From NCBI RefSeq assembly GCF_000377405.1, contig NZ_KB905020.1:372001-436000 (forward strand): a DNA stretch of 64,000 bases. Direction: 5' to 3'. Positions 34,854 through 36,087 of this stretch are shown piece by piece. The notes under the pieces were generated by a model, which was not told where the DNA came from, made no database searches, and worked only from the letters and a program-made list of their open reading frames with translations. The DNA is from Thioalkalivibrio sp. ALE31 (GTDB taxonomy: Bacteria; Pseudomonadota; Gammaproteobacteria; Ectothiorhodospirales; Ectothiorhodospiraceae). Each line of letters opens with the position of its first letter. The stretch's first letter is position 1. The position numbers were made by a program, and so were the translations under genes.

Positions 34854-35390
34854 GATTCAAGCACAGGGGGCCCGAGTGGCCCCTTTTGCATGTATAGCCC
34901 CAACGTTCTGGGATTCGAACCCGAGGAATTAGAGAAGATGGTTCGACCGGTGGCGCGCAGCGACACCGGAACGCCGCAGCGCAGCGAAGGCGGCCCGGAG
35001 GGCGGCGACCACGTCGCCGTAATCCCTCCCTCTCCGCCAGATCAAAGCAAAGGGGCCCAAGTGGCCCCTTTCGCATGTCTGGCCCCTGAGGTTTCAGGAT
35101 TCGAACCCGAGGAATCGAAAACGATGGTTCGACTGGCAGCGCGAAGCGATGCCAGAACGTCACCGCAGGTGACGACCCGAAGGGCGAGGCGCACCGCGCC
35201 GAGTAATCCCTCCCTCTCCGCCAGATTCAAGCAAGGGGGCCCCAAGTGGCCCCTTTCGCGCGTCTGAATACCCCCAATTACGGCGAGAATCGAAACCGAC
35301 CATCCGACTGGCAGGCCACGGAAATGCCGGAACGTCGCCCCGGGGAGACACGGCGCACCGGAGTCACGGCAGGCGCCTGTGCCAGCCCCG
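34854..35390 (+). repeat. Tandem ~185-bp repeats ending in the tRNA-Ser 3' terminus
   Basis: Two full units (34854-35039, 186 bp; 35040-35223, 184 bp) and a decayed third (35224 to about 35390). Each full unit has a GC hairpin with T run (GGGGCC...GGCCCC), an antisense T-arm-like GGATTCGAACCCGAGGAAT, the sequence GGTTCGA, a four-hairpin stretch of about 70 nt, and finally AATCCCTCCCTCTCCGCCA, the last 19 nt of tRNA-Ser. The layout resembles the 178-bp rtT repeats after E. coli tyrT. No convincing protein gene lies here. ORFs on either strand are translations of tRNA fragments. Confidence 0.85.
34866..34887 (+). terminator. Intrinsic terminator of tRNA-Ser(CGA)
   Basis: GGGGCC-CGAGT or CGAG loop-GGCCCC (34867-34872 with 34778-equivalent arm at 34878-34883) is followed by TTTT at 34884-34887, 13 nt after the tRNA CCA end. 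The same hairpin with T run recurs in the next two repeat units near 35052 and 35236. Confidence 0.8.
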
Positions 35391-35420
35391 GACGATCCGG
35401 CCTCGGGCCCTCCACGCGCA

Positions 35421-35459
35421 CAAAAAAAGCGGCCCGGTTTCCCGAGGCCGCTTTCCTTT
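35421..35459 (-). terminator. Intrinsic terminator of tRNA-Val
   Basis: AAAGCGGCC (35426-35434) and GGCCGCTTT (35446-35454) form a 9-bp stem. On the minus strand a run of seven T follows (complement of 35422-35428), placing it just downstream of the minus-strand tRNA-Val. The AAA/TTT flanks on both sides could also stop plus-strand transcripts leaving the repeat array. Confidence 0.85.
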
Positions 35460-35469
35460 GATCCGAATC

Positions 35470-35544
35470 TGGTGGGCGGTACTAGGTTCGAACTAGTGAC
35501 CCCTGCCGTGTGAAGGCAGTGCTCTACCGCTGAGCTAACCGCCC
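35470..35544 (-). tRNA. tRNA-Val (CAC anticodon)
   Basis: On the minus strand, GGGCGGT pairs with ACCGCCC. The anticodon arm is CTGCC-TTCACAC-GGCAG with anticodon CAC, and the T-arm loop is TTCGAAC. CCA is encoded (35470-35472). Length 75 nt. A CAC valine tRNA supplements the wobble-reading isoacceptors in GC-rich genomes that use GUG heavily. Confidence 0.95.
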
Positions 35545-35629
35545 GGAGCGCGGACAAGATTAGGGTTCGCTCGAGCGAACGTCAAGCATTGTGTGCCGCA
35601 TTTCCCCGTGATCCTCGGCTCCATCGAGC

Positions 35630-36087
35630 GGCGCAGCCGCCGCAGGACGTTGCCGTCAGGCAACGCCCGAAGGGTGAGGCCCACAGGGCCGAATCCATCC
35701 CTCCCTCTCGTGGCCGCCAGGCCACGCAGCGCGCCCACCGGTTGTCAGCCCGAGCCCCGTACCAGACAATGCCCGACCTCGGAGAGGTGGCAGAGCGGTT
35801 GATTGCACCGGTCTTGAAAACCGGCAGGGGTGAAAGCCCCTCGAGGGTTCGACAAGGCGGCGCAGCCGCCGCAGGACGTTGCCGCCAGGCAACGCCCGAA
35901 GGGTGAGGCCCGCAGGGCCGAATCCATCCCTCCCTCTCGTGGCCGCCAGGCCACGCAGCCCGCCCACCGGTTGCCAGCCTCGCCCCTGTACCAGACAATG
36001 CCCGACCTCGGAGAGGTGGCAGAGCGGTTGATTGCACCGGTCTTGAAAACCGGCAGGGGTGAAAGCCCCTCGAGGGTTCGAATCCCT
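35630..36087 (+). repeat. 229-bp tandem duplication carrying part of tRNA-Ser(TGA)
   Basis: Two nearly identical 229-bp units run 35630-35858 and 35859-36087. Each begins with a four-hairpin module (GGCGGC-type stem, GTTGCC...GGCAAC, CCCGAAGGG, GGCCC...GGGCC), then a spacer (including CCAGACAATGCCCGACCTC), then the 5' 72 nt of tRNA-Ser(TGA) ending at GGTTCGA. After the first unit the tRNA is broken off by the second module. After the second it continues into the normal 3' end. A few substitutions between units suggest a fairly recent duplication. Confidence 0.88.
35781..35852 (+). pseudogene. Truncated tRNA-Ser(TGA) pseudogene
   Basis: These 72 nt are identical to the first 72 nt of the intact tRNA at 36010, through the anticodon and variable arms to GGTTCGA in the T-loop. 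The sequence then switches to the four-hairpin module. A partial 3' remnant, AATCCATCCCTCCCTCTC, reappears at 35921-35938 but lacks CCGCCA. It cannot fold a normal acceptor stem unless the intervening 68 nt were removed. Confidence 0.85.

What the first reader, a model, noticed from the sequence alone, without database searches (positions are those of the whole stretch)
34940..35925. Four-hairpin module attached at the T-loop GGTTCGA/ATCCC in tRNA-Ser
Between GGTTCGA and (A)ATCCCTCCCTCTC lie about 70 nt with four stems. The module at 34947 has CCGGTG/CACCGG, a GCCGC stem, CCCGGAGGG and GGCGAC/GTCGCC. The one at 35133 has CTGGCA/TGCCAG, GTCACC/GGTGAC, CCCGAAGGG and GGCGC/GCGCC. The one at 35853 has GGCGG/CCGCC, GTTGCC/GGCAAC, CCCGAAGGG and GGCCC/GGGCC. 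Sequences differ but pairing is kept, so the structure seems selected. Its fixed point at the T-arm suggests targeting of tRNA by an unknown mechanism. This is the best candidate for an undescribed system here.
Basis: partly seen in the sequence, partly recalled or inferred. Interest (0 to 1): 0.8.

Follow-up and report, generated by a model that had tools for sequence, protein, structure and literature searches.

The report
RtT repeats are a mobile hairpin module
The four-hairpin pieces beside these tRNA genes belong to a known RNA repeat family without known function (RtT, or tRNA-linked repeats); comparison across genomes shows that their 60-85-base core behaves as a small mobile insert that also lands in other tRNA loops, in scattered repeats and, in frame, inside protein genes.

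Summary
Modules at 34947-35021, 35133-35205 and 35853-35925 are hairpin chains, and 56 homologues show strong covariation (106 double-changed cells against 32 in shuffles). The feature is not undescribed: 35093-35223 matches Rfam RtT RNA RF00391 (57.5 bits, cut-off 45). The copy of the upstream tRNA's 3' end is the hallmark of E. coli 'tRNA-linked repeats', described since 1978, function unknown (PMC8144298). The window lies in Thioalkalivibrio, where RtT units sit at Ser, Gln and Arg tRNAs with isotype-matched tails.

The new part is that the module behaves as a mobile insert. Base-exact filled and empty pairs place it in the T-loop (here 35781-35939 against intact 36010-36099), in the D-loop and T-loop of one tRNA-Ser copy, in an anticodon loop, and in two families of dispersed repeats. 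It also lies in frame, as 24-25 extra residues, in three unrelated proteins whose homologues lack them. Junctions share A^A, mostly A^ATC; T-loop TTCGA^ATCC is one such site. So tRNA is a frequent host, not the specific target. This resembles Rickettsia palindromic elements. The moving enzyme is unknown.

The parts
34764..34853 (+). intact tRNA-Ser(CGA), host of the downstream units
   Evidence: ARAGORN and Rfam
34866..34888 (+). terminator-like hairpin GGGGGCC..GGCCCC + T's after the tRNA; repeated in each unit
   Evidence: sequence, direct repeat family D2
34910..34922 (+). antitail of unit 1: inverted copy of the T-arm (GGGATTCGAACCC)
   Evidence: inverted repeat I1/I2; host-matched pairing across genomes
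34940..34946 (+). GGTTCGA of unit 1 (T-loop 5' part)
34947..35021 (+). module 1 (four hairpins)
   Evidence: module model R2 29.6 bits
35022..35039 (+). copy of the tRNA-Ser 3' tail ATCCCTCCCTCTCCGCCA
35093..35223 (+). unit 2: full RtT RNA match (antitail, GGTTCGA 35126-35132, module 35133-35205, tail 35206-35223)
   Evidence: RF00391 57.5 bits, cut-off 45; module model R2 63.2 bits
35305..35350 (+). degenerate third unit, no tail
   Evidence: direct repeat D4, sequence
35628..35696 (+). lone module copy, left part of a 225-nt repeat shared (96%) with 35857-36081
   Evidence: RtT 22.2 bits; R2 52.3 bits
35781..35852 (+). 5' part of a disrupted tRNA-Ser(UGA) copy, ends GGGTTCGA
   Evidence: identical to 36010-36081
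35853..35925 (+). module 3, inserted in the T-loop between TTCGA and ATCCC
   Evidence: filled/empty comparison; RtT 38.7 bits; R2 50.1 bits
35926..35939 (+). remainder of the disrupted tRNA 3' side (ATCCCTCCCTCTCG, no CCA)
36010..36099 (+). intact tRNA-Ser(UGA) = empty insertion site
   Evidence: ARAGORN, Rfam

Best explanation
The modules are RtT RNA / tRNA-linked repeats, and their hairpin core (C....GAGTA, about 60-85 nt) is a small mobile element found in Gammaproteobacteria and at least one other class of the phylum. It inserts between two A's, usually A^ATC(C/T). Shown: base-exact filled/empty pairs in T-loops, a D-loop and an anticodon loop of tRNA copies and in dispersed repeats; three in-frame occurrences in protein genes; a covarying fold; tails matched to the host tRNA. 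Inferred: the module moves, perhaps as single-stranded hairpin DNA handled by a transposase encoded elsewhere; insertion inactivates one of two tandem tRNA copies; remnants (T-loop, module, 3' tail) amplify in tandem and stay identical to the neighbouring tRNA through recombination with it. From published E. coli work: units are transcribed with the host RNA and processed. No cellular function is needed to explain their presence.
For: RtT match above cut-off. Window filled/empty pair. D-loop and T-loop modules in one tRNA-Ser copy whose first 73 nt without them equal the intact copy. Anticodon-loop insertion. Dispersed repeats: 20 empty M1 sites in this genome and 21 in G002 against filled ones with the same flanks; 65 empty M2 sites in G386 against filled ones. 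In-frame inserts of 24, 24 and 25 residues at the module in a BrxC-like protein, a small protein of unknown family and an HsdS, absent from homologues. Shared junction A^A, mostly A^ATC. Covariation. Host-matched tails, 65 of 83 identical over 16 nt.
Against: No transposition has been observed and no enzyme is known. Copies within one repeat family may descend from a single insertion and spread with their host. The downstream (RtT proper) units have an antitail whose origin simple insertion does not explain. Module lengths are not generally multiples of 3. The module has no terminal inverted repeats and at most one duplicated A.
Confidence: 0.78

Rival explanations
1. Classical view: RtT units are tRNA-linked small-RNA genes that arose by tandem duplication of tRNA 3' ends and are kept for a regulatory function; module copies elsewhere are secondary captures.
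For: Strong covariation; host-matched tail and antitail; RrA/RrB/RrF bind Hfq and CsrA in vitro (PMC8144298); RtT sRNA induced at 10 C in Thioalkalivibrio (PMC8092127).
Against: Phenotype claim for tyrT rtT was retracted (PMC8144298); copy number and hosts vary widely within one genus; modules occur in D-loops, an anticodon loop, dispersed repeats and protein genes.
Confidence: 0.25
2. One reading: an undescribed system that specifically targets the tRNA T-arm.
For: Many copies do sit at GGTTCGA^ATCC; base-exact T-loop insertion in the window.
Against: Same module at other tRNA loops, in repeats and in protein genes with the same A^A junction; the tRNA-linked form is a known Rfam family.
Confidence: 0.08
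3. The tails are attachment-site scars of tyrosine-recombinase elements that integrate at tRNA T-loops and 3' ends, with the module as a leftover of such elements.
For: T-loop to 3' end is a usual integrase attachment segment (general knowledge); tails start at the T-loop.
Against: Units repeat at 184-186 bp and sit 55-105 nt from the tRNA with no integrase remnants seen in the window region; the module occurs in protein genes and repeats without a tRNA segment.
Confidence: 0.04
4. Movement is by a Y1 (HUH) single-strand transposase, as for REP sequences and RAYTs, making the module a REP-like passenger.
For: Hairpin-rich, no terminal inverted repeats; Y1 proteins more frequent in carriers, 24 of 30 against 6 of 18 genomes.
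Against: Six carrier genomes lack Y1; non-carriers tested tend to have smaller genomes, so the enrichment is confounded; within the genus Y1 is present in all genomes tested, also in those without an RtT hit.
Confidence: 0.25

Closest known systems
RtT RNA (Rfam RF00391) / tRNA-linked repeats (TLR) of E. coli, e.g. the tyrT repeat and RrA/RrB/RrF
   Same: Unit layout, module sequence and fold, tandem copies of about 180 bp downstream of a tRNA, 18-19-nt copy of the upstream gene's 3' end.
   Different: Here hosts are tRNA-Ser, -Gln and -Arg; some copies split whole tRNA genes; the core also occurs outside tRNA and rRNA operons, including inside protein genes.
Rickettsia palindromic elements (RPE; from general knowledge, not tested by sequence)
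   Same: Short palindromic inserts found in frame in unrelated protein genes, and in RNA genes and spacers, with no enzyme of their own.
   Different: Different bacteria; here a chain of up to four hairpins and a recurring A^A(TC) junction; homology to RPE was not tested.
REP sequences / RAYT-linked repeats
   Same: Small hairpin elements, multicopy, no own enzyme.
   Different: No constant REP tetranucleotide noted, found in genes and tRNA loops, and Y1 transposase is not universal in carriers.
MITE-like dispersed repeats (GTCATTGCGAG.., GTCATTCCCGCG..)
   Same: Dispersed palindromic repeats; some carry the module.
   Different: They are hosts of the module, with many empty copies; the module itself lacks terminal inverted repeats.

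Membership tests
RtT RNA, RF00391 | covariance-model score at or above the gathering cut-off (45 bits) | tested here: met
   35093-35223: 57.5 bits. Other copies in the window are below it: 38.7 and 22.2 bits, and unit 1 is not listed.
[quoted passage not shown]
   Units 1 and 2 carry the tRNA-Ser(CGA) tail. Not met by the disrupted tRNA copy 35781-35939, whose tail lacks CCA and which lies upstream of the intact tRNA.
tRNA-linked repeats (TLR) | transcribed with and processed from the host RNA | not testable with these tools
   Reported for E. coli (PMC8144298) and as expressed RtT sRNA in Thioalkalivibrio (PMC8092127); not measured here.
Rickettsia palindromic elements (RPE) | in-frame insertion in unrelated protein genes | tested here: met
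   Three cases, 72, 72 and 75 nt, homologues without the insert, all in other genomes, none in the window.
Rickettsia palindromic elements (RPE) | sequence homology to described RPE families | not tested
   No RPE sequence was fetched; likeness is in behaviour only.
REP / RAYT system | linked or at least co-occurring Y1 (RAYT) transposase | tested here: inconclusive
   24 of 30 carriers against 6 of 18 non-carriers; six carriers without.
MITE | terminal inverted repeats and target-site duplication | tested here: not met
   Module ends (C.. and ..GAGTA) are not inverted repeats; at most one extra A.

The most novel reading that the evidence does not exclude
RtT/TLR RNAs, known for almost 50 years as tRNA-linked repeats without a function, are the tRNA-borne form of a widespread, unrecognised palindromic mobile element of Proteobacteria that inserts at A^ATC into structured-RNA genes, repeats and, in frame, protein genes (including defence genes of BrxC and HsdS type), by its own insertion mechanism.
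Probability: 0.6. Interest if true: 0.78.

Novelty: new variant of a known kind. Interest (0 to 1): 0.62.

Why it matters
It offers a concrete, testable origin for tRNA-linked repeats, an old puzzle, and ties three separate observations (RtT RNA, palindromes inside dispersed repeats, 24-25-residue inserts in proteins) to one element. If true, it adds a second large instance of RPE-like coding palindromes, in free-living bacteria where genetics is possible. It also warns that 'RtT sRNA' annotations should not be read as regulators without further evidence.

Tried and rejected
The RNAalifold structure of the MAFFT alignment gave only 8 pairs because H1 is poorly aligned; it was replaced by a hand-set structure on H2-H4. 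Folding of the 163-nt disrupted tRNA was over the size limit; a 145-nt part was folded instead. The idea that the T-loop-insert copies are working tRNAs was weakened: in another genus (L178) the pseudo-tRNA-Ser anticodon loop is altered while its stems stay paired, and near-identity in Thioalkalivibrio is explained as well by conversion with the intact copy. A role in the stringent response was dropped because the claim was retracted (PMC8144298). Location of four off-tRNA copies of this genome in a known RNA gene was excluded (no Rfam hit). Selection for open reading frames in the module in general: 4.55 open frames of 6 against 4.23 (sd 0.12) in mononucleotide shuffles, and lengths are not multiples of 3 as a rule, so I do not claim coding selection. 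A regex-based context classifier failed and was replaced. A paper search with the dispersed-repeat motif returned nothing relevant among the listed papers.

Full report
WHAT IS THERE. The region 34764-36099 holds an intact tRNA-Ser(CGA), two complete 184-186-bp units downstream of it, a degenerate third unit, tRNA-Val on the other strand, a lone module, a tRNA-Ser(UGA) copy split in its T-loop by a module, and an intact tRNA-Ser(UGA).

IDENTITY. Rfam scores 35093-35223 as RtT RNA, RF00391, 57.5 bits against a cut-off of 45; the split-tRNA copy scores 38.7 and the copy at 35628 scores 22.2. The Rfam consensus has the same layout: GGUUCGA, a hairpin module ending CGAGUA, then AUCC and a tRNA 3' end with CCA. 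The genome has ten RtT hits at E <= 1, at tRNA-Ser(CGA), tRNA-Ser(UGA), tRNA-Gln(UUG), tRNA-Gln(CUG) and a contig end. Twenty-six of 30 genomes of the genus carry it at E <= 0.01. Named records with matching loci are Thioalkalivibrio. 'RtT sRNA' induction at 10 C in two Thioalkalivibrio strains is reported in PMC8092127. PMC8144298 describes the E. coli family as tRNA-linked repeats: 22 copies at ten loci, each with 18-19 bp identical to the 3' end of the upstream tRNA or rRNA gene, no known function, early phenotype claim retracted. So the feature in the window is of a known kind.

STRUCTURE. Sixty diverse modules were parsed. When partners are shuffled among sequences, the mean longest helix falls from 5.1 to 3.7 bp (H1), 4.9 to 4.1 (H2) and 4.6 to 3.2 (H4), z = 13, 8 and 15. 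On the alignment of 56 modules, 106 cells show changes on both sides against 32 in shuffles; the covariation score is 0.358 against 0.137, and below 0.07 for slid pairings. H3 (CCCGNAGGG) hardly varies, so it says little.

TAIL AND ANTITAIL. Of 83 copies in the genus with a same-strand tRNA upstream within 720 nt, 65 have a tail identical over 16 bases and 71 over at least 15, across seven isoacceptors; the three rows scoring 6 are Ser(GCT) copies shifted by one deleted base. The same holds in other Gammaproteobacteria at Tyr, Gln, Ser, Arg, Glu, Thr, Lys and other tRNAs. An inverted copy of the T-arm (and often of the acceptor 3' strand) precedes GGTTCGA; it pairs better with the tail of its own host than with other hosts' tails (mean longest helix 7.9 against 6.0 +/- 0.16 bp). 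In the window it covers only about GGGATTCGAACCC. The predicted shape is a helix like the tRNA top half, ending in NCCA, with the module in place of the T-loop; this is inference.

AWAY FROM tRNA. A covariance model of the module alone, without tRNA flanks (R2), finds 13 places in this genome at E <= 1. Four (L192, L193, L194, L196) lie inside dispersed repeats of the GTCATTGCGAG type, away from tRNA genes. Across the class 43 of 140 genomes (one per genus) have hits at E <= 0.001; of 71 hits examined 37 carry a host tRNA tail. The rest include disrupted tRNAs, dispersed repeats and isolated sites. A wider draw finds the module outside the class too.

INSERTION EVIDENCE. (1) In the window the split tRNA-Ser(UGA) copy equals the intact one for 72 nt, and for 22 nt upstream, then diverges exactly after GGTTCGA; ATCCCTCCCTCTC resumes after 73 nt. 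(2) In L342 one tRNA-Ser copy holds a 73-nt module in the D-loop and an 80-nt module in the T-loop; without them its first 73 nt equal the intact copy downstream. (3) In L240 the module splits an anticodon loop, CTTGA^AAACC. L341 and L338 are further D-loop cases. (4) Repeat M1: 20 empty copies in this genome and 21 in G002 read GCAATC, filled copies GCA|module|ATC. Repeat M2 in G386: 65 empty copies reading GCGGGAATCC, filled ones GCGGGA|module|ATCC. A different repeat in G134 and one in enterobacterial genomes also carry it. (5) Protein genes: in L328 an 836-residue BrxC-like protein has 24 extra residues exactly at the module, missing in homologues about 72-74% identical. In L356 a 137-residue protein has 24 extra residues missing in a 40% identical homologue. 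In L395 a type I restriction S subunit has 25 extra residues missing in two homologues. Junctions: TTCGA^ATCC, GCA^ATC, GCGGGA^ATCC, GGTGGA^ATCC, GCGCCA^ATCG, GGTTTGA^ATCC, GGTCGA^AAGC, CTTGA^AAAC.

READING. The module is best seen as a mobile palindromic insert with an A^A(TC) site. tRNA T-loops are a frequent landing place, and tandem tRNA copies allow the cell to survive the hit. The downstream units (RtT proper) look like later products of such events, kept in step with the neighbouring tRNA. How the antitail arose and what moves the module are open. Y1 transposases are commoner in carriers (24 of 30 against 6 of 18) but not universal, and genome size confounds the comparison.

LIMITS. Copies inside one repeat family are not independent insertions; the independent contexts shown are three tRNA loops, at least two repeat families with empty copies, and three protein genes. 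Only open-licence papers could be searched with ten queries, so prior description of this element cannot be excluded. Statements on Rickettsia palindromic elements, REP/RAYT and integrase attachment sites rest on general knowledge.

Noticed in passing
L328 502-3012 (-), L356 263-676 (+), L395 909-2255 (+): RtT-type modules read in frame inside a BrxC-like protein, a small protein of unknown family and an HsdS subunit; two of the three are phage-defence or restriction genes.
   Followed up: yes
L342 about 312-560: One tRNA-Ser copy carries two modules at once, in the D-loop and in the T-loop, directly upstream of an intact copy.
   Followed up: yes
L229-L234, L247 (genome G134): At least seven near-identical dispersed elements with ends TAGCCCGGATATTGCACCAAGG / CCTTGGTGCAATATCCGGGCTA carry the module in their middle; no empty copies were sought.
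   Followed up: partly
L401, L405 and matches in E. coli chromosomes: An enterobacterial dispersed repeat carries a module (GGGTGA|CAAATCTGCC..GAGTA|TTTAAGCG); 679 of 5426 E. coli genomes have a related stretch, unannotated in the rows listed.
   Followed up: partly
window 34910-34922 and 35097-35108: Inverted T-arm copies precede each downstream unit; across genomes they match the host tRNA's own tail, and their origin is unexplained.
   Followed up: partly
L235 and L008 1492-1860: Tandem tRNA-Gln copies each split in the T-loop by a module, upstream of an intact tRNA-Gln; in some relatives the copies stay near-identical to the intact gene.
   Followed up: partly
window 34866-34888 and the matching place in each unit: Each downstream unit contains its own terminator-like hairpin, so RtT transcription may need read-through, as reported for the rRNA-linked repeats of E. 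coli (PMC8144298).
   Followed up: no
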